Assembly: GCA_902702965.1 (NCBI GenBank)
Contig: CACRXP010000010.1
Coordinates: 2,409,111-2,473,110 of the forward strand
DNA: 64,000 bases
Direction: 5' to 3'
Source of the DNA: Spirometra erinaceieuropaei
Taxonomy: Eukaryota; Platyhelminthes; Cestoda; Diphyllobothriidea; Diphyllobothriidae
Shown: in pieces, positions 2,904-58,386 of the stretch
Numbering within the stretch: the first letter of the stretch is position 1
Layout of the letters: each line of letters begins with the position of its first letter
Notes under the pieces: model-generated
Told to the model about the DNA's origin: nothing
Database searches by the model: none
The model's input: the letters and a program-made list of their open reading frames with translations, nothing else
Program-made: the position numbers and the translations under genes

Positions 2904-3893
2904 CAGTGAGTGGCCGATCTCATGAAATGTTGGCTGAAATTCTGAAATGCGTTTTCGATTAGAAAGGATTACTGGATCGCGGTTGTAATACTGATTAGTT
3001 TAAGGCATACTCATAACATTTCGCACTCAGCTGGATGTCGGCTTTTAAATGCACTTCTTTTCAATCCCCTGTAAAAAGCGTACTCGGTAAAAAATGACTA
3101 CTTAATTAGCATGCATTTTGCCAATCGATTTTCGATGGTCTTAGAAATTCAAATATATTTTATAGAAATCATAAACAAAAATATGCTTTATTTTAGTCGA
3201 TCAATAGAGAAGCACGCCTTTTTTATATTTTACACTTAAAGAAAGGGTATAATTAAGTTTTAAAAAAGTTTTCTAATTGCCGAATAATTTGGAGCCTGAT
3301 CATTCGCTGCATTAGCGCTTAGTGATTTCACTCTACAAGGCGCATGCGTTCCTCGTAAAGAAAATCACATATTTTTCTATGCCATTAAAGAGATATCATA
3401 CAGAGTCCATAAAATTTTTCAATGGACGCGGACCATGTTGTACATTTCATGAGGAGCAGTGGTAAACCTCCAGGTACGATGCTATGTGAATTGACATTTA
3501 GCGGTCTTTAAAAGTCTCATAATTAGAAACTTTTTATAAAAATCTAATTATACTCCATCTTTAAGTATAAAATATAAAGAAGACGTGATTCTCTATGGAT
3601 TGACTAAAAGAAAGCCAATTTTTGTTTATGGTTTCTATAAAATATATTTGAATTTGTAATACCATCGAAAATCAATGGGGAAAATGCATGCTAATTAAGT
3701 AGTCATTTTTTACCGAACACGCTTTCTACAGGAGATTGAAAAGTAGTGCATTTAAAAGGCGACATCCGGCTGAGTCCGAATTTGTATTCGAGTATGACTT
3801 AAGCTAATCAATATTAGAACCGCGACCAAGTAATCCTTCCTAATCGAAAACGCATTTCAGAATTTCAGCCAACATTTCATGAGATCGCTCACA
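2904..3893. mobile_element. Tc1/mariner-like palindromic (fold-back) element, copy 1
   Basis: The two halves are imperfect reverse complements over nearly the full 990 bp. CTCATGAAATGTTGGCTGAA near 2920 matches TTCAGCCAACATTTCATGAG near 3865, and GACTACTTAATTAGCATGCA matches its complement near 3690. The left end begins CAGTGAGTGG directly after a TA (2902-2903). The right end has decayed, so the target duplication is not intact on that side. It encodes no transposase and must be non-autonomous. Related copies are at 15798, 25143, 31465 and 53701. Confidence 0.8.
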
Positions 3894-4003
3894 CAATTTA
3901 AGTCACCGTCTCTGCTTCACCTTGCTGTGGGACACACGGTGGGCATTATCGGCAACGACGGTCGAAATGTCGGAACTGGTGAACCAATCTCTGAGCGATG
4001 GAT

Positions 4004-15797: not shown

Positions 15798-17121
15798 CAG
15801 CAGGTGTGCTAAGTCTTGAAGTTGTTGGGAGTGCCTACACTTCCAAAATAAAGAGCCAATCAAACACTGGAGACCACGTGTGCTTGCTCTTTCTACAGCT
15901 CTGCCATCTTAATCGGGCGTCTCTCCATTAGCTACTCCCCTCTTCCCGATGGTCGTTGGGCCGGATGCCGACGAACCACAGTAGTGTGGTATAAATATGC
16001 ATCACCTTTCAGCTAGTCGCGACTTGCAGTGTGTTTCTAAGACACTTTCCGAGACCGGCCGTGTTTTTTTGTCTGCCGCTTTGGCATTGGGGACAAGGGT
16101 CAAGTGCGAATAGGCTCCAGGGGATGTCAAGTACCAGGCGGGTCATAACAGAAATGTTGACCGGAATTCTGAAGTGCGTTTCCGTTTCGAAAAGGTTACT
16201 TAGGAATGGTTTTAAAAGAAGTCATTGTACATCATGATCTATAATACTTCTGATACCTCGGATGCCGGCTTTTGAATGAACATCTTTCCGGCCGCATGCG
16301 AAAACCACGCTCTGCAAAAATGACCACTTATGTAGAATGATTTTTTTCAAACTGATTTTCGATGTCCTCAAAAGTTCAATTGCATTTGCTGGAAAACATG
16401 CATAAAAATATTCATTCTCTTGCTCATATAGTAGAAAATTGCGTTCTCTTCAAATTTCTTACTTGAAGAAAGGGCATAATTTGGCTTTCAAAATCTTCTC
16501 CTATTCCCAAATAATTTTAAATCCAACCTGCTTTTGCACTTGCATTTAGGGTTTCCAAACTACAAACCATATATTTTTCAGTACGGGGAACCATTAATTT
16601 CTCTATGGTAATAAAACGAAGCCATAAACGGAGTTTATAAAGTTAGCAGTGGATTTGAGCCGTATTGTAAACTTTACATGCAACATAAGTAAATGCAGAG
16701 GCACGATGTTGTATGAAAGGACATTTCGCAGCATGTAAACTCTCATAGTTAGGAACATTTTAAACCAAATTATACCATTCCTTCGAGTATAAAATTGGAC
16801 GAAAACAAGATTTTTTGTCCAATGGGCAAAAGAATGAATATTTGTATGCATGTTTTTTTATGAAATATAATTGAAACTTTAAGGGCATCGAAAATCAATG
16901 AGAAAACTTCACGCTATACAAGTAGCCATTTTATACAGAGTGCGGTTTTTGCAGGCGGCGGGAACGATTTTCGTTTGATAGCCGGCATCCCGAGATATCT
17001 GAATTATTATAGAATTATACTATACGATCCCGCTTTGAAAACCCTACTTAAGTAATATTTTCGAAACGAAAGTGTTTTACAGAATTTTCGGTTCACATTT
17101 CATGAGTTAGCACACCTACTA
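15798..17121. mobile_element. Tc1/mariner-like palindromic element, copy 2, with nested insert
   Basis: Starts CAGCAGGTGTGC after TA (15796-15797) and ends CACACCTACTA before TA (17122-17123). The arms match copy 3 (25143) in layout. About 320 bp at 15820-16142 are absent from the copies at 31465 and 53701, which read directly from the GCTAAG end into GAAATGTTGACCGG; this is a nested insertion of unknown type. It contains a TATAAATA sequence at about 15991. No transposase. Confidence 0.75.
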
Positions 17122-17123
17122 TA

Positions 17124-18329: not shown

Positions 18330-19176
18330 GGAGTAGGCCTAATAATACAAAAGACTGGTTACTGCATGGCGTTGTTCAGTTACGTTTTGTTTTTCGAAAA
18401 CCTGTTAGGATTGGCCTGCTTGTTTCATACTCTTGTGCTATTGACCTCGCAGACAACCGGCCCGACGAGCAGGCGCTACAAATTGTCTATATAGACTCAT
18501 TATCGAGCCCCTCAACCCGGACGTGTTAGATGTCATGCGTAAGTTTTGTCCGCGATCGAAGATATGCCAAAGACTGGGTATTTTGAGATTACTTTATTCT
18601 GTTTCTTCGGCCGCTGGTCTGCCTAAAGACAAGAAGTTAGTTTACGGTTTATCGCTATTTTAAACTGTTGCAGCTAACTTTCACATACAGAAACTGATTT
18701 TTATATCCACATGGACAGACTATAATTACGCGATTCGATATTCTGGGCGGGAATTTCTTTCTGATGCCGAGATCCTCCATAAATACCACGACTTATTTCC
18801 ATTACACATACCTATTTACCTATTTGCAAGCCATGTCTCTTTACACTATTAGACTTGTATTTTCTAATCCATCATACTTACTGCCACCTAGATTAACTTG
18901 TCGTACATTCTTCTTGTTTTCTGTTTTGTTTTTTAGCAAATTCTTGACTGTCATTGCGTCTCCTGGTATAGCTCTCAGCCTGCGTTATTTGCATATCTGA
19001 TTGCTTCCTGCAGTAAACTTCGATTGGCGACTAGTTCCCCTGGAACATGAGCGTCCGTTTTTTAGTTGACAGCAGTTTAATCAGTTGCCTGAATTACCTT
19101 GACTACTGTTTATAATTAGTCTTTTGAATTCGTGCACCTACTTACTGTTTACGTTCTAAGCACATTAGAAGGTTCC
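18330..19176. repeat. Dispersed repeat E, copy 1 (holds an empty PLE site)
   Basis: Matches 36370-37056: TACTGCATGGCGTTGTTC, TATAGACTCATTA, CCAAAGACTGGGTAT and TTACGTTCTAAGC. The join to the sequence that follows (19177-19184) corresponds to the insertion point of the PLE at 37065. Confidence 0.7.
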
Positions 19177-19530
19177 AGATGTTATTTTACATTTTTTTTC
19201 TCATTGTCGATTTCTCGATTTCCTTTTGTGTGCGTCCGAAGGCCCTACCCGTATAAGCTCTTTTACCACCATTTACCTTAGACAGGATCCTAAGGTTCTC
19301 CGTTGCTGACCCCGGGGACCAACAATACCCTCGCTATAAATATGGAGTCTGGCTTCTGTAGTTATATAATAGAAATGTGGTAGTATACATCAGCATCAAC
19401 CCCCTTCTACCCCGAGTGGGTAAAGCTTTAATTCCCTGGACTATCTTCTCGACTCGTAATTTTTAAGCAAGAACTCGTTCCTCGGCGTCGGTTGGCGCCG
19501 TCATCCGTCTGGAGGGGGTTTAATGGCCAA
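19177..19530. repeat. Repeat E right part and repeat D
   Basis: Matches 38810-39160, 40090-40430 and (first 100 bp) 58475-58580: CTCGATTTCCTTTTGTGTG, TTCTCCGTTGCTGACCCCGG, ATACATCAGCATCAACCC. Non-coding. Confidence 0.65.
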
Positions 19531-22946: not shown

Positions 22947-23640
22947 GGTGAATTTTAACAGTGTGTATATTTTGGATTTTGTGGGGGTCTGTAGTAGGTG
23001 GGGTGGAGGGGGGCGGGATGAGAGCGTGGTGGTCCCACTGCGAGGGCCTGTTTGACCTCTGCGCTTCTGGCGCGTACTAGCGGCGGTTTGGTTCTCGGCC
23101 GAACACAGCTATGCGAGCCAACCAATCAACTTCAAGGCCGACGCGAACGGTCGCCCAAGGCGCTTTGACGGGTGTCCCACTGCCAGGCTGGATTCTCGCT
23201 AACGCGGCCCGGCAAGTGGGCTCTCCCGCGACTGCCGACTTGTGCCAACCCCTTTTTCCGTCTGTCTGTACAGAATCCAACATCCCCTTAACTGGGGTCT
23301 AATTTCTCTCCTTATTCTGGACCGGGCCCGAAGGTTAAAGTGGCCTCTGGCTTACGCTGACGTGACAAGATCGGTAAAAGTTTACATGTGCTATGTAACG
23401 CCAAGTAGGCCTTTGGCAACGGAAGGATGTATGACCCCAACTAACATGAGGTAGTTTGTGGACCGTGCAATACGTTAAATAGTGGTAGAGAGGGATTTAT
23501 ATGTGGGGCAATAAGCAGGAAGAAGAGCAGGAGAAATGCAAGAAAACACGGAAAATAAATTTCTACCGAAAGTCTTATCGTATGCTGTCATATGGCAAAG
23601 AAAATGAACGCGAAAATTTAAAAAAAAATAGACAAAAAGT
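22947..23640. repeat. 3' flank of the duplicated tetraspanin block
   Basis: 22900-23380 matches 47170-47780 and 23380-23560 matches 49058-49210. The two parts adjoin here but are split in the other copy by a PLE inserted at the AGATCGGTAAAA site (23368-23379). Confidence 0.75.
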
Positions 23641-24935: not shown

Positions 24936-25142
24936 GAAAAAAATTCTGACTAGTTCTCGGAAAGCTCGCATTTCCGTTAATACAGCCACTCTAAAAATAT
25001 TCTGACGGACAACACGGCCCAATATGTATGGTTTCAAACTACCACAATCCATTATGCTCACCATTCTTTACAAACGAATATTGCAAACTAATCTGAAGTT
25101 TAAAAAACTATCTAGGATTTTGCTAACAAAGTTTTTGTCATA
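24936..25142. repeat. Merlin/PLE junction repeat
   Basis: Matches 27990-28188, 28785-28985 and 50190-50380 (GCTCGCATTTCCGTTA, ATATTCTGACGGACAAC). It ends at the TA duplicated by the next element. Confidence 0.6.
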
Positions 25143-26134
25143 CAGTAGATGCGCTAACTCATGAAATGTCAACCAAAATTTTGAAATGGATTCTCGTTTC
25201 GAAAAGATAAAGTAAGTAGTGTTGTAAAACTAATCATGATGCAGCATAAATCTATAATGATCCAGTTACCTCGGGGTGTCTGCTTTCGAAAGAATTTATT
25301 TTCGACTGCATGAAAGATATATACTCTGCAAAAATGACTACTTAATTAGTATGCAATTTTCTCATTGATTTTCGATGCCGTTGAAAATGTTATTATATTT
25401 CATGGAAAACATATATAAAAATATTCACTCTTTTACTTATTTGGTTGAAAATCATGTCTTCTTCCAACTTCATACTCAAAAGAAAAGTATTATTCGGTTT
25501 TAAAAAAGTTTCTAATTGTGAGATTTTTTAATACCGTTAAATGGCCATTCATAAAACGTCATGTATCTGCATTTACGAATGTGGCTTGTAAAGTTAACAA
25601 TATTGCTCAAATCCACTACTTAATTTTATCAACCTCATATGGTCTCATCTTAACACCGTAGAGAAATGCATACAATATTATTTACTTAACAAGAAACATT
25701 CGTAAATGCAGATACATGACGTTTTATTAATGGCCATTTAACAGTATTAAAAAATCTCACAGTTAGAAACTTTTATAAATCGAATTATACTATTCTTTTG
25801 AGTATGAAATTGGAAGAAGACGTGATTTTCTACCGAATTAGTAAAAGAGTGAATATTTTAGGCATGTTTCCCATGAAAGATAATTGAATTTTCAAGGGCA
25901 TCGAAAATCAATGAGAAAATTGCATACTAATTAAGTAATCATATTTTTCAAAGTATAGATCATGCATGCAGCCGAAAATAAGTTCTTTCGAAAGCAGACA
26001 CCCTGAGGTAACTGGATAATTATTGATTTATGCTGCATCATGATTAGTTTTACAACACTACTTAATTTATCTTTTCGAAACGAGAATCCATTTAAAAATT
26101 TTGGTGGACATTTCATGAGTTATCACATCTACTG
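25143..26134. mobile_element. Tc1/mariner-like palindromic element, copy 3 (exactly bounded)
   Basis: The 992-bp element starts CAGTAGATGCGCTAACTCAT and ends ATGAGTTATCACATCTACTG, with a TA duplication on each side (25141-25142 and 26135-26136). The empty paralogous site is GTCATATGCATAAG at about 28183-28196. Nearly the whole element is one inverted repeat with arms of about 480 bp and its centre near 25640. TA target choice and CAGT ends fit Tc1/mariner; there is no transposase ORF. Confidence 0.9.
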
Positions 26135-26136
26135 TA

Positions 26137-26725
26137 TGCATAAATGTGGCCTCCGAATGACCTGTCCGTTGAAGGCCATATGAGACATCTTTGTCTTCAG
26201 TCTTAAAAGTCTAGCTGAGATCACTTTTCCCTGAGAATTAATCGAAACCTAAATGTCAACGAACTTTACAGGCCAATCTTCTACAGATAGCCCACCTCGG
26301 CCCTTTCGGATAGAGGCAAATTACTTATGGGAGAACATGGCCTGTAGGCATAAAAAGGAAAACTTGGGGAAAACACGATGATTGACATTCCGTAAATCAC
26401 ATTTAAACCCATCACCAAAGGCGGAATCAGATAAGGCTTATGCGCACAGACTAAAGGCAACTACGAGGCCGTAGGACCCACTGCCACGACAGGAAACGTC
26501 TGGGGTCATCTACCGCCTCGACAACGGTTGTGAACAAAGCTAATACGTCTAAAAATCTAAAGGACTACTTGCGACGCGGATGATGGATCAAGCCGTGGCA
26601 GTGAGGAGGAAGGAAGCTAGCTACGAGTGGCACTCAGTTCAACGGGATCCGACGATCATTCAATTTCGATGAGGCCAAAATCGCGCAAGAGGTGACAATC
26701 CTACAAGCATACAAGGCTGTTGAAA
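26137..26725 (+). pseudogene. Strongly decayed PLE 3' part, copy 1
   Basis: Follows GTGGCCTCCGAATGACCTG. From about 26490 it matches the GIY-YIG start of better copies (GCCACGACAGGAAACGTCTGGGGTCATCTACCGCC), then TTCAATTTCGATGAGGCC, the FDEA motif. Many stops and shifts; no usable frame. Confidence 0.5.
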
Positions 26726-28985: not shown

Positions 28986-30010
28986 AAATGTGACCTCCGA
29001 ATGACCTGCCTGTTAAGGGCCACCTAGGAACTATTTGCCATGAGCTGAAAGGAGCCCAGCTGAGATCACCTACTGAGATTGTCCTTGGGAATTTACCGAA
29101 ACTATACAGGACAATCTCCCATAGGCTGCCCACATTGACACTTTGAGATCGAGACAAATTATTCATGGGGGAAACATGGCCCACTTGCTGCTATGCTTAA
29201 AACCATATGCCCTTTCACAAATGCCGTCAATGTTGCTGCAAATATGACAAGAAAACCTGAAGAACACACAGTGCCTGAATCACACTCAAATCCATCACCG
29301 GAGACGAAATCAGGCAAGGCTAATGCACTCAGACCGGATGCAACCACGAAATTAAAGGGTCCGCTGCCACGGCAGGAAACGTCTGAAGTCATCTACCACC
29401 TCGGGTGAAGTCGCGGAGACAACAACTACGTGGGAGAAACTGGAGTAGCAGCCAATTCGAGGGGATCCGGCTGCACATCTAAACGTGAGGTGGTCGCAAT
29501 TTTCGCGAGAGGTGACAATCGTGTGAGCCGCAAACTGTTTAAGTCATGGCTTTCTAGCCTTTATTTGGGCACCGAGATTAATGACGACTTGCCGACATAT
29601 TCTGTGTTGAGACCTTGCTTTGACGGAGTGAATGACCACATGGGGAGCGTGCTGGTGACCACTGTTCACAGTCCCAATGTCGGCGATTCAAATGACACAG
29701 GAACCCACACAAGTGATGCAATCCCAGTGGGTCATGCCTCATATGTGTGCAGTTAGGCGATTATTGAACCACATGCGGCCGTCCGCAATGATTTCCAGGA
29801 TCGACAAATTTTTATTGGAGGCATAGCAACTGCATCCTATAAACAGTCCAGCACTCCCCTTGCTTGATTGAGCCTCTGATGATGCATCCGAGTGTGAATC
29901 CGAATCTTCCGGCAAGTAAAACTCCTGTTCCAGCGATCGTGCCTCCCTCTTTCTGACTGCCTTCCCGGACTCGCACCTTGCTATTTATCCGCTGAAGGAG
30001 CAACGCTTAA
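28986..30010 (+). pseudogene. PLE 3' part with GIY-YIG relic and ribozyme-like end
   Basis: A short frame at 29193-29408 ends LKGPLPRQETSEVIYHLG, the entry to the GIY-YIG domain. A second frame continues NNYVGETG, then RGDNRVSRKLFKSWLSSLY and PTYSVLRP. The stop after YHLG and the missing helix between them show loss of function. Its 3' end (29870-29930) has a decayed hammerhead-like sequence. The same unit is at 50757-51732. Confidence 0.65.
29870..29930 (+). ncRNA. Decayed hammerhead ribozyme motif
   Basis: CTGATGA at 29876-29882 is preceded by GCCT and followed at the right distance by GAATCCGAAT, where intact copies have GAATCCGAAACGTC. The GAAAC and GUC parts of the core are lost, so cleavage is not expected. 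Confidence 0.45.
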
Positions 30011-31464: not shown

Positions 31465-32390
31465 GCGTATTTTACAGCAGGTGTGCTAAGCCTTGGAATG
31501 TTGACCGGAATTCTGAAATGCGTTTTCGTTTTGACAAGATTACTTAGGTATGGTTTTAAAAGAAGCCATCGTGCAGTACAAGTCTGTAATAATTCAAATA
31601 CCTCGGATGTCGACTATCGGAAGAACACCTTTCCGGTCGTGTGCGAAAACCACATTCTGTAAAAATGACTGCACACGCAGCATGAATTTTTCCCACTGAT
31701 TGTCGATGTCCTCCAAATTTCTATTGCATTTCTTGGGAGACATGTATAAAAATATTCATTCTGGTGCTCATTCGGTAGAAAATTGCGTTCTTCAAATTGC
31801 GTACTTGATGAAATGGCATAATTTGTTTTTCAAAATCTTTTCCAATTCCCAAATAATTTCAAATCCAACCTACCGTTGCACTCGCGTTTAGGGTTTCCAA
31901 ACTACAAACCATATACTTTTTGCGTAAAGATAACCATACATTTCTTTACGGGAATAAAACGAAGCCATGTAGGATTCATAAAATTTAGCAGTTGATTTGA
32001 GCCATATTCTAAACTTTACAAGCAACATTAGTAAATGCAGGGACACAGTGTTTTATGAACGGGAATTTGGCGGCATAAAAATCTCATAATTAGCAATTTT
32101 TTAAAACCTAATTACACCCTTCCTTCAAATATAAAATTGGAAGACGGCAATTTTTCTATCGAATGGGTAAAAAATGAATATTTTAAGCAGGTTTTCCGTG
32201 AAATATAATTAAAATATTAAAGGCATCGAGAAGCTCTGTGAAAAATGTACGCTATATTGGTAGCCATTTTATACAGACTGCGTTTGTGCAGGTGGCCGCA
32301 AAGATGTTCGTTCGAAAGCTGGCATCCAAAGATACCTGAATTATTATAGAATTATTCGTCATGATGACCACTATTAAAACACTACCCGTA
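31465..32390. mobile_element. Tc1/mariner-like palindromic element, copy 4 (right end lost)
   Basis: Begins CAGCAGGTGTGCTAAG after TA (31463-31464). Arms are as in the other copies; the right end breaks off near 32390 before the expected CTACTG. Confidence 0.7.
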
Positions 32391-37056: not shown

Positions 37057-37115
37057 CGATGTTGCCATTAGAAGCGAAGGGACGACCTCCAGGAGACACG
37101 ATCATCGCTACAAGA

Positions 37116-37171
37116 GCTTTATTCGCCTGTCGTTTCGGATTCCTGATCGAACCCATCATCAGAGACAAAAG
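37116..37171 (-). ncRNA. Hammerhead ribozyme motif, minus strand, GUC changed to GAC
   Basis: On the minus strand: TCT, CTGATGA (37162-37156), stem II GGGTTC/GAATCC around a GATCAG loop, then GAAACGAC where active copies read GAAACGTC. The stem I partner AGGC and the distal AAAGC are present. The altered cleavage triplet should block or weaken cleavage. Confidence 0.6.
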
Positions 37172-37259
37172 TAGATACGTCAAAGGAGCTGACGAACTAT
37201 CAGATACAGGTTTTACGGCACGAAGCTTTATTCAACACGGCTGACGCCAAACCTGTTAG

Positions 37260-38178
37260 CATGATTGCAGCGGTGGAATCAATCCTTAAACAGACGGAGA
37301 CAACGGAGGGCACTAACAGCCTCATCCGACACCAAGCGTCATCCCTCCTAATGGTCCACAGGCCGCGGGAAATGCTTTCCGAGGTCGAGCGTGATGCGCT
37401 TAGAAAACCCAAGGCCGACAAAGACCTAGACCTCGTGCGGTTTCTACAAAGCAAATAGGATGAAACGGAGAATCGTCTTGGGCACGCCCAAAATCTTAAG
37501 CTCCTGAAGTTCTGTCTTAGGACGTACTTCACGTTTGATCGGACAATCTACGAACAGGTGAAGGGCACGCTAATGGGTTTTGCCGATTTCGGGATTCATT
37601 GCCGAGGCGGCCCTACAACGGTAAGAGTCGCTGACCACAGACCGAAGTTGTCGGTCCGGTATGTGGATGATACCTTTGTCGTTATGTAACGGGAAAAGGT
37701 GATGACATCCAAAGAACATCTCAACGTCGCGCTCCCGGACATTCAATTTACGGTGGAGGAAAAAGAGAATGAACATCTGACCTTCCTAGATGTCCTTGTA
37801 TGCTGCAAAGATTGTGACGGCCTATGGACCACAGTGTTCAGGGAAGCGACAAATACGATGCAAGTACTGAACTTCAACAGCAACCATCCAAACAGCCACA
37901 AAAGCAGTTGTGTGAGGAGGTTCTATCGGCGTATCGAAACGCACTGCAATGAACCGAGCTACAAAGCCCCCGACGGATCCTCAAAGCCAATGGCTTCCCG
38001 CGCAACTTCGTCAACCGGTGCATACGTGAAAGGGACAAAAGGCCTAACTGCAGGGACCCCAAATTTTGGCGAGCAGTTCCGTATGTTAAGAAGGTTTTGG
38101 GAGCTGTCGGCCGCCTTTTCGCACCATTTGGGGTTGGAGTTGCACATAGACCGGAGGCAACCATCAGACGTTAGATAA
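37260..38178 (+). pseudogene. PLE reverse transcriptase, C-terminal half, broken
   Basis: Frames follow one another with interruptions. 37261-37458 ends FLQSK then TAG where the paralogue at 56 kb has a Tyr codon. The next part reads DETENRLGHAQ, LKFCLRTYFTF and EQVKGTLMG; the catalytic strand is YVDDTFVVM, followed by TAA at 37687-37689. Then 37699-38178 continues HLNVALPDIQFTVEE, LTFLDVLVCCKDC, NFNSNHPNSH and RFYRRIETHC. Motifs ahead of the palm (including the first catalytic Asp) are deleted. PLE RTs prime on chromosomal DNA; this one is inactive. Confidence 0.8.
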
Positions 38179-38560
38179 TGAAACTGAAAGGCCAGCTGCC
38201 ACGGCAAGAAATGTCTGGAGTCGTTTATCGGATCTGGTGTAGTTGCGGACAAAGCAACTACGTCGGAGAAAGCAGAAGACAACTCCGAACGCGAATGTCC
38301 GAATACGCTGCAGCCGTGCGGAGAAATGATGCCAGTTTTCAGGCTGGGGTTTAATCGACGAGATACGGCCACACAACCAAATTCCACGAGGCTGAAATTC
38401 TCGAACCAAGAGCTATTTAAGTCATGATTTGCTGGCTCCCAATCAATCAACAAGTGCACCGACCTTCCCTTTCCATACTCAGTGCTGAGACTTTGCCTAG
38501 GCGGAGTAATGAGGCACGCGGAGAGCGCACAGGGGAACAGTGTTTTCAACGCCAGCGTCG
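38179..38560 (+). pseudogene. PLE GIY-YIG endonuclease domain, copy 1
   Basis: In frame from MKLKGQLPRQ at 38178: SGVVYRIWCSCGQSNYVGES, then RRQLRTRMSEYAAAVRRNDA, a stop near 38353, then TRYGHT and FHEAEILE. VVY and YVG stand for GIY and YIG, and the Arg of the LRTRM helix is present. It lies directly behind the RT fragment, as in all PLEs with this domain. A 280-codon antisense frame covering it is a shadow. Confidence 0.8.
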
Positions 38561-38719
38561 CTGGATCAGATGGTTGAGCAATCATCACACCAACATCCAA
38601 CACACGTAACGGCGCGAATATCGACCATGAAATCATCATCAGGGAGTCACGGTGGCATGACGACTGCATCCTATAAATACTGCAGTCCCTTGTGCATGAA
38701 CCATCTCTATCTACTTTTG

Positions 38720-38775
38720 TCTGCGATGATGGGTTCGAGCAGGAATCCGAAAGGAATGACGAATAAAGCTCTTGT
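38720..38775 (+). ncRNA. Decayed hammerhead motif at the 3' end of PLE copy 1
   Basis: GTCTGCGATGATGGGTTCGAGCAGGAATCCGAAAGG keeps stem II and loop, but CTGATGA is broken and GAAACGTC reads GAAAGGAATGAC. The same GAAAGG form occurs at 58425, so it marks a sub-lineage. Confidence 0.5.
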
Positions 38776-38814
38776 CCGGGTGATCGCGTCTCCTTCTTCA
38801 CACTTACGATGTTG

Positions 38815-42120: not shown

Positions 42121-42412
42121 TCAGGCTTGGGCATCTGAGGGGATGTTAATCAACGACATGTCCCCCTACAATTGCACCCCTTCTGGTCTCGTTATCGACC
42201 TCGACCAAGTACACATTTACGCCATCATTGACCATAAGTTGGGTAACTCTAATCCAACATTCGGAGGTGGGAGTAGTGGTCGAGACCAGTGCATTTGAAT
42301 CTCACATCAACCTGTCACAATCATGGCACGCGGCAAGTCATATGCCGATCCCGAGGCTTGCGGAGAGAACTGTGCTGTCTCACTAGAAACTCTGCATACA
42401 ATTGCATATAGC
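42121..42412 (+). repeat. Dispersed repeat B, copy before PLE lineage 3
   Basis: Its last 165 bp (42240-42405) match 43495-43660 on the other side of the PLE. Confidence 0.6.
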
Positions 42413-42429
42413 TGAGCCTCCTGGGATAA

Positions 42430-43231
42430 CCATTGGCTACAAATCCTACACTTCGACAGCAACCATCCTCTGTCTCACAAACGTAAATGTGTCCGCACTC
42501 TATTCCAAAGAGTCGAAACCCACTGCAGCACGCCAGAAGATAAAAGGGCCGAACGATTGTAACTTGTGAACCTATTTGTAGCCAATGTTTATCCCAGGCA
42601 TTTCATCGAGAGAAGCAGACGTTGGGCGCCCAGGCGACGGCCAAATGAGCAGCAACCCGAAATCTGGAGGGCCATTCCTTACGTTAGAGTGGTCTATGAA
42701 GCGATCTCGCGACTGTTATAGCCCACCAGTGTAGGCCTAGCCCATCGACCACAAGCAACAATTCGACGTCGCCTGTTTCAACCTAAGGACCCATTGCCAT
42801 CCGCCGAAACCTCAGCAGTCATTTACAAAATAAATTGCAATGAGGGCGACTGCAACTATGTGGGAGAAACCGGTCGGAAATTGCAAACTCGCCTACAAGA
42901 ACACAAGTCGGCCACTCGGAGGTTAGACCCTAACTCTCAACTAGCAACACACGTTGGAGAAACGGGGTATACTTTTGATCTCCAGAGGACTATCATCTTA
43001 GGCCGAGGCAACGCAAACACAGAACGGCTAACTCTCGAGGCGTGGTTCTCCGATGCCCTTTCTATCAACAGGCATCTGACCTTCCTGCTGCTTACAAAGT
43101 CCTACGTCATCACAGTCGTGAGTTCAGGAACAAAAACCACATTGGACTTAAGAATGCCGCACGGAGATAGCCCGACGCTGAGTTTACTCGGTAAGGAAGA
43201 AGAAGAACCGCCAAACCGACCGCCCGACTAA
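42430..43231 (+). pseudogene. Penelope-like element of a second lineage: linker and GIY-YIG domain
   Basis: One frame runs from about 42434 to the stop at 43229-43231: HFDSNHPLSHKRKCVRTLF, RRWAPRRRP, PEIWRAIPYVRVVYEAI, then the nuclease SAVIYKINCNEGDCNYVGET, RKLQTRLQEHKSATRR, THVGETGYTFDLQRT and TLEAWFS. Only two stops interrupt it (TAA 42560-42562 and TAG 42719-42721). VIY and YVG replace GIY and YIG; the helix Arg is kept. It has the CNxxxCxY spacing and differs clearly from copies 1 and 2, so it is another PLE family. The RT is missing. Because the GIY-YIG part has no stop, this copy is fairly young. Confidence 0.8.
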
Positions 43232-43394
43232 AGTCCAATCAGCTCCCCTCGACGGAGTGTTGACTCACAAAGCACACAGGCAAAACGCCCGTCAACCATC
43301 TCCCGAGAGGTCGAGGCGGCGGAAGGAGAGAAAAATCGATCAGCATGAGGCCGGTCAACACAACATGCCACTTTAAATTAAATTTCTGATCGAT

Positions 43395-43456
43395 TAAGTG
43401 CATTTTACGCCTTGACAATGAAGAGCCGACCGAGCTCTTTGAAACGTCAGCACTTA
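43395..43456 (+). ncRNA. Degenerate hammerhead motif of the second PLE lineage
   Basis: TAAGTGC (43395-43401) is complementary to GCACTTA (43450-43456), which gives stem I. AAGAGC pairs with GCTCTT around CGACCGA (stem II), and GAAACGTC follows at 43441-43448. The CTGATGA box reads TTGACAATGA, i.e. with a 3-base insertion. The overall layout agrees with the ribozymes of the other PLE lineage; activity is doubtful. Confidence 0.5.
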
Positions 43457-43494
43457 AATAAACCTCTTCCAGAGAGCCTATCTTCATCTTCAAA

Positions 43495-44190
43495 TAACCC
43501 TAATCCAGCATTTGGAGGTGGGATTATTGGTAGAGCCTAGTGCATTTGAATCTCACATCAAGTTGTCACAATGACTGAACGGGGCAAGTCACAAGCCGAT
43601 GCCGTGACTGGCGGAGAGAACTGTGCTGTCTCACTGGAAACGTTACATACTAAGACCATTATCTGCATAGCACTGCGTCTTCTACAGTCTAACGTCACCC
43701 GGGGACGGTGTGGGGGCGACGGGTGTCTCGTCCGACAGACGCTAACGCGTCAGTCCGTCAACCGTGGCACCTTTCTGATCGCAAAGTCTGCTATTCATCC
43801 TCTGCTCACTCATTGCCTCACATAGGCCTCAAGTTCTGACCTCGTTAGGCACCTACAGATCATTTGCCCGAGGTGTCGTCTCTTAGTTCGTGATAGATGG
43901 ATATTCTAAATGGTCCGCAGTAGTCCTAGTTTATCGTCTAGCTGGGTCGTGAATCTTTGAAATTTTTAGAATGAATATTTTGCCGCAGCTACCCCACAAT
44001 TCACCACCAAATACTGTTTTTCAACTGATCCGAAAATTTAACCAATAGGCTTCCTTGGTTTCTTGCGATCACCAGTGACCTCTTTCGCGTGGAGTGGTGA
44101 CCAGTCAGTCCAATAGAAACAGGACTCATTGCAAATCAATCCAAAGTGAAATGAACTAGTATTTAATAGAGTGGTTGTAGATCTTGGTTT
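43495..44190 (+). repeat. Repeat B and FB2 fragment, 5' flank of tetraspanin 2
   Basis: Matches 19600-20310 nearly without gaps up to the tetraspanin start, which shows that the flank was duplicated with the gene. Confidence 0.75.
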
Positions 44191-47214: not shown

Positions 47215-47769
47215 GGTGAATTCTAACAGTGTGTATATTTTGGATTTTGTGAGGGTCTGTAGGATGTGGAGGTGTGGATGTGGTGGGCGGATGATGAGAT
47301 TGTGGTGGTCCCGCTCCGAGGGCATCTTCAGACGCCGCGCTTCTCGCGCGTACTAGTGGCAGTCAGGTTCTCGGCCAATCACAGCTATGGAAACCAGCCA
47401 ATCAACTTCAAGGCCGACGCTTGTCTGTGGTAATTGATGATGATTTTCTTTGCCCACATGTGGATGCCGCATGAGTGATAGGCCACCTGTACTTAATCAT
47501 GGTGGTCTATGATAGAGTCAGCCGACATATATTCATGAAAAATTTGCCCATTCTTCTGTACAATGAGGCTGACGAGGTCCCACTAGCAGGCTGGATTCTC
47601 GTTATCGCGGCCCGACAAGTGTTCCTTCCTGCGGACTCCGACTTGTTCCAACCTATTCTTCCATCCGTCTGTGCGGAATTAACATTCCCTCGTCTGGGGT
47701 CTAATTCCTCTCTTTATTCTGAAGCGAATCCGAAGGTTGAAGTGACCTATGGCTTACGCTGGCGCGACA
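47215..47769. repeat. 3' flank of the duplicated tetraspanin block
   Basis: Matches 22947-23367. It includes about 110 bp extra (about 47430-47545) relative to the other copy. It ends at the AGATCTGTAAAA target duplication. Confidence 0.65.
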
Positions 47770-47807
47770 AGATCTGTAAAAAAAGAGACACGGTAGATGG
47801 GATGAGA

Positions 47808-47863
47808 GCTTTATTAGCCTGACGTTTCGGAATCCTGCTCGAATCCATCATCAGAAACAAAGG
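47808..47863 (-). ncRNA. Hammerhead ribozyme, minus strand, outer left end of the double PLE
   Basis: Minus-strand order: CCTTTGTTT, CTGATGA (47854-47848), GGATTC/GATTCC stem II with one U-U mismatch, GAAACGTC, AGGC, then AATAAAGC. Core and GUC cleavage triplet are intact; stem I uses G-U pairs. Confidence 0.7.
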
Positions 47864-47877
47864 TAGATAGGCGTGGT

Positions 47878-48245
47878 TCATGCACAAGGGGCTACAGTAT
47901 TTATAGGATGCAGTCGTCGTGCTACCGCGTACCTATGAATATTCTCGGCTCCCTGCCCTTCATCAGGGATTGTCGCATTAGGTGTGCTGACTGTCTGATA
48001 GCCGACATTCGCGTCTTTAATTGCGGCAATTTCATCACGTGTGTTGGATTTTGGTGTGATGACTGATCCACCGACCGTGGCGTTGGGAACAGTGTTCACC
48101 TGTGCGCTTCCCACGTGGTAAATTACTCTGGCTAGGCGAGGTCTCGGCACTGAGTATGGAAGGCGGAGTTCACTGCGCTTGTTGATGGACTGGGAGGGCA
48201 GTGAATCATGACTCAAGCAACTCGTGGCTCATGCGGTTGCCACCT
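47878..48245 (-). pseudogene. PLE C-terminal part, minus strand
   Basis: The minus-strand frame of 112 codons (48216-47878) reads QSINKRSELRLPYSV, RVIYHVGSAQVNTVPNA and SNTRDEIAAI, which match the ends of PLE copies 1 and 2. It is joined head to head to the plus-strand PLE at about 48246. Confidence 0.7.
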
Positions 48246-48676
48246 ATACCGCTTATGTCAAGAACGTTTCGGAAACTATCGGCCGCATCCTCGCACCACT
48301 TGGATGTGGAGTTGCACATAGACCGTGGACAACCATCAGACGTCAGGTAATTAAACCCAAAGACCCGCTTCCACGGCTAAAAACGTCTGGAGTCGTTTAT
48401 CGGATCTGGTGCAGTTGCGGACAAAGCAACTACTTTGGAGAAACCGCAAAACAGCTCCGAACGAGAATGGCCGAACACACTGCAGTGGTGCAGAGAAATG
48501 ACGCCAGCTCTCAAGTTTCGGCTTATTCGACGAGATACGGCCACACATTCAAATTCGATGAGGCCGAAATTCTCGCTATAGGTGACAACCGCGTGAGCAG
48601 GGAGCTACTTGAATCATGGTTCGCTGCTCCCAGTCAGTCAGTAAGTGCAACCACCTTCCCCTTCCATACTCAGTGA
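48224..48676 (+). pseudogene. PLE GIY-YIG endonuclease domain, plus strand, open frame
   Basis: A 150-codon frame whose PLE part begins after the junction at about 48246: VSETIGRILAPLGCGVAHRP, LPRLKTSGVVYRIWCSCGQS, NYFGETAKQLRTRMAEH, GHTFKFDEAEILA and GDNRVSRELLESWF. The nuclease domain is complete, with VVY and YFG strands and the helix Arg, but there is no RT, so it is only a domain fragment. The first residues come from the inverted partner, and the nominal start is not real. Confidence 0.8.
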
Positions 48677-48924
48677 TGAGACTTCGCCTAGGCGGTGTAA
48701 TTAGACACGTGGGAAGCGCACAGGGGAACACTGTTTCCAACGCCAGGGTCGGTGGATCAAATGGTCGAATAATCATCACACCAACATCCAGCACACGTGA
48801 TGCAATTGAAAAAAACTAAAAACGCGAATGTGGGCCATCAGACAATCGTCAGGGCGTCACGGTGGCATGGCGACTGTATACTATTAATTACTTCAGCCCC
48901 TTGTGCATGAACCACCCGTATCTG

Positions 48925-48985
48925 ATTCTGCCTCTGATGATGGGTTCAAGCCGAAATCCGAAACGTCAGGCTAATAAAGCTCTTG
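48925..48985 (+). ncRNA. Hammerhead ribozyme, plus strand, outer right end of the double PLE
   Basis: GCCT (48930-48933), CTGATGA (48934-48940), GGGTT (48942-48946) with AATCC (48955-48959), GAAACGTC (48960-48967), AGGC (48968-48971). Stem I is fully paired over four bases; the distal part is weaker than in the best copy. Cleavage is predicted after C48967. Confidence 0.75.
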
Positions 48986-49057
48986 TCCCACCGATCGTGC
49001 TTCCTTCTTGAAGACTGCTTCCTGGGGATCGTCTCCGCTTTTGTTAGATCTGTAAAA

Positions 49058-49300
49058 TGTTACGTGCACTATTTAACGCCGAGCAGGCCCTTGGCAACTG
49101 TATGGTTTGTGATCCCAACTCACTTGAGGTGGTTTGTGGACCTTGCGATACGTTGAATAGTGGTAGAGGGGTTTTTAGGGGTGGGGCAACACACAGGACG
49201 AAGAGCGGAATAAGTGATGGTAGCAATCACACGGAATTTGAGTTTTTTAGTTGCCAGCTAATTGGGGCCCTGCACCCTACCGTTACCTAGGTCCTTTCGT
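49058..49300. repeat. Right flank of the double PLE
   Basis: Continues 23380-23560 (GTAGTGG.. of relic A context: TTTGTGGACC, GTTGAATAGTGGTAGAG). Confidence 0.6.
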
Positions 49301-50756: not shown

Positions 50757-51732
50757 TGTGGCCTCTGAATGACTTGCCTGTTAAGGGCTACCTAGGAACT
50801 AGTTGCCATGAGTCGAAAGGAGCCTAGCTCAGATCGCTTACTGAGATTGTCCTTGGGAATTTACCTAAACCCAAATGTCAACGAACTATAAAGGAAAATC
50901 TACCATAGGCTTCCCACATCAACACTTTCGGATCGAGACACATTACTCGTCGGGGAATATGGCCAACTTGCTAATATGCTTAAAACCAGACGATCCTTCA
51001 CAAATACCGTCAATGTTGCTGCAAATACGAAAAGAAAACCTGGGGGAACACAGAGTGCCTGACATTTCGGAAGCGCTCTCAAATCCATCATTAGAGACGA
51101 AATCAGGCAAGGCTAATGCACGCATACCGGAGGCAATCACGAAATCGAAGGGTCTGCTGCCACGGCAGGAAACGTCTGGAGTCTGGGGGGAGGCAGTTGA
51201 GAAGAAAACAACTACGTTGGAGAAACAGGAGGACCATGTGGGACGCGGATGGTCGAGTTTCCCGCAGCAACAACAGCAGCGAGGAGGAAGAACGCCTGTG
51301 CCCATGTCGCAGCCAATTCGACGGGATCCGACTGCACATTCAAGCCGGGGGCGGTCTAAATTTTTTTCGAATGGTGACAACCGTGTGAGCCGCAAACGGT
51401 TTAAGTCATACTCTTATAGCCTTTAGTCGAACACCGAGCTTAATGGCGTCTTGCCCACATATTCTGTGTGGAGACCTTGCTTTGACAGAGTGAATGACCA
51501 CATGGGGAGCGTGATGGCGACCACAGCTCACAGTCCCAATGTCGGCGAGTCAAATGACTCAGGAACCCACACAAGTAATGCAATCTCAGTAGGTCATGCT
51601 TCATATGTGGTCAGTTAGGCGATTATTGAACCACATGCGGCCATCAGCAATGATTTCCAGGGTCGACAAATCTTTGTAGGAGGCATAAAAACTGCATCCT
51701 ACAGTTAGTGAAACACTCCCGTTGCTTCATTC
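50757..51732 (+). pseudogene. PLE 3' part with GIY-YIG relic, copy 2
   Basis: Parallel to 28986-29880. Frame 50875-51426 gives LLPRQETSGVWG then loses the domain; DNRVSRKRFKSY follows downstream. Its end is replaced by element G copy 3. Confidence 0.6.
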
Positions 51733-53700: not shown

Positions 53701-54315
53701 CGGCACGTGTGCCAAGACTTGAAATGTTGAACGGAATTCTGAAATGCATTTCCGTATCGGCAAGAGTATTTACGTATAGTTTTAAAAGACGGCATTATGC
53801 AGCATGACCCATAATAATTCAGATACCTCGGGGTTCCGGCTTTCGGATGAACATCTTTACGGCCGCATGCGAAAACCACTGTTTATAAAAGTGACTACTT
53901 ATGTGGCATGAGTTTTTCGCACAGATTTTCGATGTCCTCTAAAGTTCAATTGCATTTGTTGGAAAAAAGGCATAAAAATATTCATTCTCTTGTTCATTCG
54001 GTAAAGAATTACGTCTTCTTCAAATTTTATACTTGAAGAAAGGACATAATTCGATTTTAAATATAACCTACCGTTGCACTTATAGTTAAGGTTTCCATAC
54101 TACAAACACTATATTTTTTCCTACAGAAAACTATGCATTTCTCTACGGCCATAAAACGAAACCATGCGGGATACGTTAAATTAGCAGTGGATTTGAGCCA
54201 TATCATGAACTTTACAAGCAAAATAAGCAAATATAGAGACACGATGTTTTATGAACTGGCATATCGCGGCATAAAAAAATCTCAAAATATGTAATTTTTT
54301 AATAACCGATTTATA
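53701..54315. mobile_element. Tc1/mariner-like palindromic element, copy 5 (right arm mostly lost)
   Basis: Begins after TA (53699-53700) with CGGCACGTGTGCCAAG. The left arm and centre match copies 2 and 4; the element breaks off near 54315. Confidence 0.65.
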
Positions 54316-54535
54316 CCCATCCGACAGGGCAACGGGCTTGTGGTCCACTAGTTGGAGGCGTGGACTTCTAACTAACAGATCACGAGTTCGCGCGTCGAGT
54401 ATACCACACTTATGGGTTGGGTATGACTAGATGACGATGGCTAATAAGCCAGAAATGGCCATTTCAGTCTCCCTTGTCTTGTCTTTGCTAAACTGCAAGG
54501 GGACTGCGAAGACTTTTTGTGCTCTCCTTGTTGCC
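54316..54535. other. Unassigned stretch with one hairpin arm
   Basis: Contains AAGCCAGAAATGGCCATTTC (about 54446), one arm of the hairpin at 32777. Confidence 0.4.
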
Positions 54536-57427: not shown

Positions 57428-57826
57428 TAGTGCGGAGAAATGATGTCAGCTCTCAAGTTTCGTCACCTTCGAAGACATTCGGCCACACATTCAAATTCGA
57501 CGAGACCGAAATTCTCACTAGAGATGACAACCGCGTTAACCACGCTTCTGCTTGAGTCATGGTTCATTGGCCCACAGTCCATCAACAAGTGCAACCAACT
57601 TCCCCTTCCATATTCCATGCTGAGACTTCGCCCAGGCGGCGTAATTATCCACGCGGTGGGCGCACAAGTAAACACTGTTCCCAACGTCAGGGTCGGTGGG
57701 TCAGATGGTCCAGCAATTGTCACACCAACATCCAGCACATGTAATGAAATTGCAGCAATTAACGGCGCGAATATCGACCACCAAACAATCATCAGGGATT
57801 AATATTGACCCAACTGTGAAAAACTC

Positions 57827-57914
57827 GGCGCCTCGGTGGGATTCGAACCCACGCAGTAAGGGGGCAGGCTTTAGTACAGCCAGTGCTCTAACCACCTGAG
57901 CTACGAGGTGCCGC
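57827..57914 (-). repeat. tRNA-like SINE head, minus strand
   Basis: Minus strand: A box TAGCTCAGGTGG (57903-57892) and B box GGTTCGAATCC (57849-57839), with a paired T arm and a mostly paired acceptor. The anticodon arm does not fold as in a normal tRNA (extra CTGCCCCCTTA), so I call it a SINE head, not a tRNA gene. Confidence 0.65.
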
Positions 57915-58169
57915 CGGACGACGCGAGTTTTATCACACTTGGGTCAAGTTACCCGCCCAACCTACTGCAACGTCTGGAATCCACCAAATCTGATACAGTA
58001 AGTTGACTGCCCAAGCAGGATTTCCTAAGTAATTCACCTAGAATCCACCAGATGACTATTAGGCTCACGTAATTCATTGATATTTTGGCAGATTTTGAAT
58101 AATTCATATTGACCCAACTGTGAAAAACTCGGCGCCTCCGGACGACGCGAGTTTTATCACACTTGGGCG

Positions 58170-58253
58170 GGGCCTCGTAGCTCAGGTGGTTAGAGCGCTG
58201 GCTGTACTAAAGCCTGCCCCCTTACAGCGTGGGTTCGAATCCCACCGAGGCGC
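58170..58253 (+). repeat. tRNA-like SINE head, plus strand
   Basis: A box at 58178-58189 and B box at 58232-58242, nearly identical to the minus-strand head. The D arm (GCTC/GAGC) and T arm (GTGGG/CCCAC) pair; the region between has the same non-standard length. Confidence 0.65.
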
Positions 58254-58386
58254 CGAGTTTTTCACAGTTGGGTCAATATGAATTATTCAAAATCTGCCAA
58301 AATATCAATGAATCATAAGGGAGTCACGGTGGCATGGCGACTGCATCCTTCAAATACTGCAGCCCTTGTGCATGAACCGCCCGTAT

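What the first reader, a model, noticed from the sequence alone, without database searches (positions are those of the whole stretch)
47770..49057. Head-to-head double PLE inserted as one event, a hammerhead at each outer end
The 1264-bp insert has perfect 12-bp target duplications and an empty site at 23368-23379 in the duplicated block. Inside, a minus-strand and a plus-strand PLE 3' part meet at about 48246, so both 3' ends point outward. A single duplication means the inverted structure existed at, or arose during, integration. Both ends carry GAAACGTC-type cores.
Basis: partly seen in the sequence, partly recalled or inferred. Interest (0 to 1): 0.8.

Follow-up and report, generated by a model that had tools for sequence, protein, structure and literature searches.

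The report
Two-armed Penelope insertion with paired ends
A jumping gene in a tapeworm-like genome landed in one step as two back-to-back partial copies; this two-armed form recurs in that genome, and in every case that could be read one outer end was a short form and the other a long form, a clue to how this poorly understood class of jumping genes copies itself into DNA.

Summary
A 1264-bp insert (47782-49045) sits between perfect 12-bp target duplications, with an empty site at 23368-23379. Its arms are inverted 3' parts of one Penelope-like element (PLE) and meet at 48246-48253. The genome (759 Mb, unnamed) is held; protein matches point to a diphyllobothriid tapeworm.

The layout is not unique. 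Outward-facing inverted arms inside a single target duplication recur in this genome and match the published Penelope 'inverted pLTR' anatomy: a new member of a known kind.

New as far as my searches reach: this family has two outer-end forms 36 bp apart, short (S) and long (L, with 'tail'). In 32 of 32 two-armed insertions with both ends readable (read by eye; 21 have target duplications beyond the shuffled range), one end is S and the other L. Some young insertions have nearly identical arms. Inner ends differ by at least 61 bp.

Best explanation: two-sided target-primed reverse transcription. Both cut target strands prime, one at each of two adjacent start sites, on RNA from one source element. 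This argues against the published self-priming idea for this family. Hammerhead motifs are conserved; activity is untested, and one predicted fold pairs the core differently.

The parts
47770..47781 (.). left copy of the 12-bp target duplication AGATCTGTAAAA
47782..48245 (-). left arm: 3' part of the PLE (about E2525-2999 of reference copy L020), outer end of the short (S) form, a few bases short
47821..47854 (-). hammerhead-like core of the left arm (GAAACGTC at 47821-47828, CTGATGA at 47848-47854, minus strand)
   Evidence: activity untested, no Rfam match
48246..48253 (.). arm-to-arm junction, 8 bases assigned to neither arm
48254..49045 (+). right arm: 3' part of the PLE (about E2199 to the long end), with EN region and pLTR, outer end of the long (L) form
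48389..48490 (+). remnant of the GIY-YIG endonuclease region (Pfam PF01541, 20.2 bits, below its 22.6 cut-off)
48934..48967 (+). hammerhead-like core of the right arm
   Evidence: activity untested, no Rfam match
49010..49045 (+). tail of about 36 bp that distinguishes the L end from the S end
49046..49057 (.). right copy of the 12-bp target duplication
23368..23379 (.). empty target site in the duplicated block (one mismatch)
37065..38802 (+). second two-armed PLE insertion of the same family (left arm minus with L end, right arm plus with S end), 12-bp TSD with one mismatch, empty site near 19173-19184 (read by eye)

Best explanation
The insert is one Penelope-like retrotransposition product made by two-sided target-primed reverse transcription. 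The element's endonuclease cut both target strands about 12 bp apart. Each free 3' end primed a cDNA near the 3' end of element RNA, one at start site S and the other at start site L, 36 nt apart. Both cDNAs grew inward, stopped at different points and were joined, giving two outward-facing 3' arms inside one target duplication. Shown: a single TSD with an empty site; outer ends at two recurring positions; one S and one L end in every case counted as readable; near-identical arms in several young cases; scattered, non-palindromic junctions. Inferred: priming on both strands, the 3' overhang and the cDNA joining. More speculative: that both cDNAs come from a single RNA molecule.
For: Two-armed insertions with both outer ends readable: 13 independent ones (14 of its 21 entries; L045 is a copy of L044), 9 of 11 loci, 10 of 12 loci. 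All 32 of 32 have one S and one L end. Three more copies show a short second arm of the opposite form (L017 about 25 bp, L027 about 24 bp, L035 only about 8 bp and so weak), and L054 reads as S/L by eye with a 10-bp TSD. TSD score is at least 10 in 16 of 23 entries against 0 of 400 mismatched pairs and in 5 of 10. Inner ends of the two arms differ by at least 61 bp in 32 of 32. Young composites have near-identical arms: 99.9% over 1052 bp in L021, 99.7% over 364 in L042, while the nearest other copies shown differ by about 6-8%. L042 arms share a 12-bp deletion, and L039 arms a core change, not seen in the other of 51 rows. The finding's own arms form one clade (99/79, below the starred threshold). 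Independent biochemistry: the anole PLE protein cuts and extends both strands and starts RT at two adjacent internal sites that match the genomic 'tail' (PMC11167929, main text read).
Against: No biochemistry in this species. I assigned S and L labels by eye from printed end sequences, not blind. The sample comes from four similarity searches that each scored only 40 candidates; in two of them the query contains the tail and favours L-ended main arms, so there only the partner's form is informative. TSDs in 11 of the 32 (and in L045) score under 10, within or near the shuffled range. L041 looks S/S but its arms are 85% alike and no TSD was found, so I set it aside. L016/L019 (one insertion) has an S-like and an L end but no TSD. 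L031 arms are not sisters in the tree, and its plus arm has a patch unlike the other arm, so one source is not shown there; for several short arms the partner is not the best match. Several copies with a TSD show no second arm (L024, L028 with 9 bp, L038). [quoted passage not shown]
Confidence: 0.73

Rival explanations
1. Self-priming: an antisense transcript folds back and primes on itself, and the hairpin cDNA is inserted (proposed for Adineta vaga PLEs in PMC3846280).
For: Proposed by specialists to explain head-to-head PLEs with palindromes at the junction. It also gives arms from one source.
Against: It predicts both arms starting at nearly the same internal point. Here inner ends differ by 61 bp or more in 32 of 32. 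It gives no reason why the two outer ends are the two RT start forms.
Confidence: 0.08
2. Classical twin priming as in L1: the second target strand primes inside the same RNA, so the upstream part is inverted.
For: L012 and L033 have an inverted internal piece whose outer end is not the 3' end, though no TSD beyond chance was found for them.
Against: In the 32 composites both arms begin at the element's 3' end and overlap in sequence, which classical twin priming (recalled) does not give.
Confidence: 0.05
3. The head-to-head composite is itself a mobile unit that moves as a whole.
For: C116 (L002/L044) and C157 (L003/L045) share the finding's layout and junction within 1-5 bp but lie in other flanks. 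Near the junction both read CTTATG where most other copies printed read CGTATG.
Against: Arms group by insertion, not by side; forcing the minus arms together is rejected at p-AU 0.02, the plus arms are not (0.107). No rare derived site is shared by same-side arms alone. Sharing both inner ends within 6 bp has a permutation p of 0.08 among 32 composites. C116 and C157 are copies of one insertion (94% over 3.4 kb), with only a degraded TSD.
Confidence: 0.08
4. Two separate insertions, a later inverted duplication, or an assembly artefact.
For: None positive; long reads were not available.
Against: One 12-bp TSD and an empty site, and the same anatomy at 31 other insertions counted here.
Confidence: 0.03

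Closest known systems
Penelope elements of Adineta vaga (Pen2a_Av and others; PMC3846280, passages and Discussion read)
   Same: Inverted pLTR at the 5' side, head-to-head the commonest inverted arrangement, TSD of 8-10 bp in several copies (none in others), optional 31-bp tail on one of the inverted pLTRs, 5'-truncated bodies.
   Different: There palindromes at the junction led to a self-priming model; here the junctions are not palindromic and the tail is on exactly one end in every case counted.
Poseidon PLE of the green anole, PAc (PMC11167929, main text read)
   Same: RT plus GIY-YIG protein, pLTR with hammerhead motif, two adjacent RT start sites matching the 'tail', cutting and extension of both target strands.
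   Different: In vitro work; the main text holds no analysis of paired insertion ends and reports no difference in start site between strands.
L1 twin priming (recalled; search listing only)
   Same: Inverted piece and single TSD from priming on both target strands.
   Different: The second priming is internal and the arms do not overlap; here both arms start at the 3' end.

Membership tests
Penelope-like elements with GIY-YIG endonuclease (Penelope/Poseidon type) | reverse transcriptase domain | tested here: met
   PF00078 at 40.7 bits (cut-off 29.6) in the ORF of the related copy L020; the finding itself lacks this part
Penelope-like elements with GIY-YIG endonuclease (Penelope/Poseidon type) | GIY-YIG endonuclease domain | tested here: inconclusive
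   20.2 bits in the finding and 22.0 in L020, just under the 22.6 cut-off; right place in the ORF
Penelope-like elements with GIY-YIG endonuclease (Penelope/Poseidon type) | pseudo-LTRs from partial tandem copies | tested here: met
   334 bp at both ends of L020, 99.7% identical
Penelope-like elements with GIY-YIG endonuclease (Penelope/Poseidon type) | inverted pLTR with optional 3' tail on one end, and TSD | tested here: met
Penelope-like elements with GIY-YIG endonuclease (Penelope/Poseidon type) | RT placed within the PLE clade by phylogeny | not tested
   no RT tree was built; protein matches are to hypothetical or unnamed tapeworm proteins
type I hammerhead ribozyme | conserved core letters CUGAUGA ... 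GAAA | tested here: met
   conserved in most of 51 aligned copies
type I hammerhead ribozyme | hammerhead fold with free core | tested here: inconclusive
type I hammerhead ribozyme | match to a curated covariance model | tested here: not met
   no hammerhead match in Rfam 15: whole window at gathering; 47700-49100 and L020 2200-5450 at E up to 5
type I hammerhead ribozyme | self-cleavage | not testable with these tools
   needs an RNA assay; stem III would be only about 2 bp, which suggests dimers (inference)

The most novel reading that the evidence does not exclude
The strict S/L pairing means that the two cDNAs are made on one and the same RNA molecule by two reverse transcriptases of a dimer, each taking one of two adjacent start sites and each primed by one of the two cut target strands: a built-in two-handed integration in which the head-to-head form is the normal intermediate and simple 5'-truncated copies are those in which one arm stayed short or empty.
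Probability: 0.35. Interest if true: 0.78.

Novelty: new member of a known kind. Interest (0 to 1): 0.55.

Why it matters
How Penelope-like elements integrate is an open question (PMC11167929). They cover about 10% of two related tapeworm genomes (PMC8166898, passages). The pairing seen here (one short and one long end) is a simple signature that can be counted in any genome with recent PLE insertions. It separates two-sided priming from self-priming and can be tested directly with the purified anole protein.

Tried and rejected
Two separate insertions and an assembly artefact were rejected on the single TSD, the empty site and the many like cases. A mobile composite was considered because C116 and C157 share the junction; tree, site patterns and permutation did not support it. 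Antisense self-priming and classical twin priming were rejected for the 32 composites. A hammerhead match in Rfam was sought and not found. Another PLE lineage was to be tested for the same rule, but the genome search did not complete.

Set aside before the count of 32: L009 (right side runs on into ORF sequence and then a run of N), L016 and L019 (one insertion, no TSD), two stretches of L032 (ends not terminal), L041 (S/S-like, arms 85% alike, no TSD), L043 (right end cut), L049 (no inverted arm in the fetched stretch), L054 (second arm internal; on re-reading it looks S/L with a 10-bp TSD, not added), L067 (inverted piece internal), L068 (left end outside the fetched stretch). TSD searches on L009, L016, L019, L032, L041, L043, L012, L033 and L054 gave scores of 7 or less. 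L045 is a copy of L044 and was not counted. L046 and L056 have nearly the same target sequence; both were counted because their S and L ends lie on opposite sides. If they are one event, the count is 31 of 31. From the hit tables, candidates with a visible opposite-strand partner were fetched except C278 (complex) and C44 (same pattern as C302); C74 and C696 showed only a same-strand second hit.

Full report
Observation. The 12-bp duplication AGATCTGTAAAA flanks 47782-49045, and the duplicated block holds the empty site AGATCGGTAAAA at 23368-23379. The two halves are inverted copies of the 3' part of one PLE, 71% identical to each other, meeting at 48246-48253. Both carry the hammerhead-like letters CTGATGA...GAAACGTC.

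Host and element. Among the 13 best protein hits of the endonuclease-region ORF, 12 are named as Sparganum proliferum or Spirometra erinaceieuropaei and one has no name; identities are 65-78%. So the genome is probably a diphyllobothriid tapeworm; the assembly itself is unnamed (758.7 Mb). A related copy, L020, shows the full anatomy: a 334-bp pLTR at both ends (99.7% identical) and an ORF with an RT domain and a GIY-YIG region just under the Pfam cut-off. The hammerhead core letters are conserved in most of 51 aligned copies, but no Rfam model matches. Activity is untested.

The layout recurs. I searched the own genome four times, each scoring only the best 40 candidates, and fetched 37 + 11 + 12 regions. 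Inverted 3' arms facing outward recur. Of 21 entries examined, 14 entries (13 independent insertions) have both outer ends readable, including the finding and a second case in the same window (37065-38802). Searches added 9 of 11 and 10 of 12.

Two end forms, paired. Outer ends come in two forms: S, ending at about ...CTCCTTCTTCAA, and L, which runs 36 bp further to about ...CTTCGCTTCTATTG; single ends vary by a few bases. In 32 of 32 readable two-armed insertions one end is S and the other L. I read the forms by eye. The longer arm is S in 13 and L in 19, and arm lengths are uncorrelated. If ends were drawn independently at even odds, 32 of 32 has p about 5e-10; that figure assumes independence and an even mix. 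Queries contain the tail, so main arms there are L by selection and only the partner is informative. Three copies that look one-armed carry a short inverted second arm of the opposite form (L017, L027 and, weakly, L035), and L054 reads S/L by eye. Others with a TSD show none (L024, L028, L038), and for many one-armed copies no TSD was found.

Target duplications. In one search, 16 of 23 entries score 10 or more, against 0 of 400 mismatched pairs. The other seven are L013a, L025, L030 and WB (10-12 bp with one or two mismatches), L044 and L045 (one old, duplicated insertion) and L046 (start coordinate off; 11 bp with one mismatch when recentred). In one search all 10 have a candidate TSD of 7-13 bp with at most one mismatch, but only 5 of 10 score 10 or more; L062 and L064 are within the shuffled range.

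Source of the two arms. In several young composites the arms are nearly identical while other copies differ more: L021 99.9% over 1052 bp, L042 99.7% over 364, L019 99.5% over 847 (L019, with its copy L016, is outside the 32). L042 and L039 arms share changes not seen in the other aligned rows. In the tree the arms of the finding form one clade (99/79, not starred; by path length other, less decayed copies are nearer) and those of L044/L045 do too (100/100). L031 arms are not sisters there; its plus arm holds a patch unlike its partner. For many short arms the data cannot tell, and the partner is often not the best match.

Mechanism. Both outer ends at RT start positions, a staggered duplication, arms that overlap in the 3' part and stop at unrelated inner points are what priming from both cut strands would give. 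The anole PLE protein cuts and extends both strands and starts at two adjacent internal sites that correspond to the tail (PMC11167929). The published alternative, self-priming on an antisense template (PMC3846280), predicts palindromic junctions; here inner ends differ by at least 61 bp in 32 of 32. L012 and L033 look like classical twin priming, without a TSD beyond chance. That one S and one L start are used together suggests that both cDNAs share one RNA, but sequential use of the two sites by an asymmetric dimer on RNAs of one locus would look the same.

A puzzle. C116 and C157 (one duplicated insertion) share the finding's junction within 1-5 bp on both sides and one nearby base. Trees and site patterns argue for independent origin. 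The coincidence has a permutation p of 0.08. It is left open.

Known or new. Inverted pLTRs, TSDs and the optional tail are in print (PMC3846280; also noted in PMC8969392, passages). I saw no statement of a strict S/L pairing, or of two-sided priming as the source of the inverted arms, in the listings or in the passages and sections I read. The library is open-licence only; Craig et al. 2021 and Cervera and De la Pena 2014 are not held, and I did not look up the original D. virilis papers. So novelty of the rule is unproved.

Noticed in passing
window 25139-26138 and relatives at 16151-17123, 31473-32385, 53707-54322, 2907-3895: Repeat family with long inverted arms (25139-26138 matches its own reverse complement at 87%); looks like a foldback element, several copies in one window.
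   Followed up: no
window 57798-58313: Inverted pair of tRNA-Ser (ACT) genes or pseudogenes on arms 96% identical, apparently inserted inside a PLE copy.
   Followed up: partly
window 29278-29990 and 51057-51731: Older PLE copies of another lineage that also show a minus-strand hammerhead-like remnant at the left (by eye at 29278) and plus-strand PLE sequence at the right.
   Followed up: partly
window 42400-43495: A further PLE family (GIY-YIG 23.6 bits, above cut-off) ending near a GAAACGTC motif, with about 155 bp of target-like sequence present on both sides.
   Followed up: no
L046 and L056: Two insertions in nearly the same target sequence, with S and L ends on opposite sides; possible target preference inside another repeat.
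   Followed up: no
L040:2327-2498: A tiny two-armed insertion of about 170 bp made only of two opposed 3' ends, with a 13-bp TSD.
   Followed up: partly
L050 and L054, left ends: Runs of CTT/AAG units at the S end, as if the start site slipped during copying.
   Followed up: no
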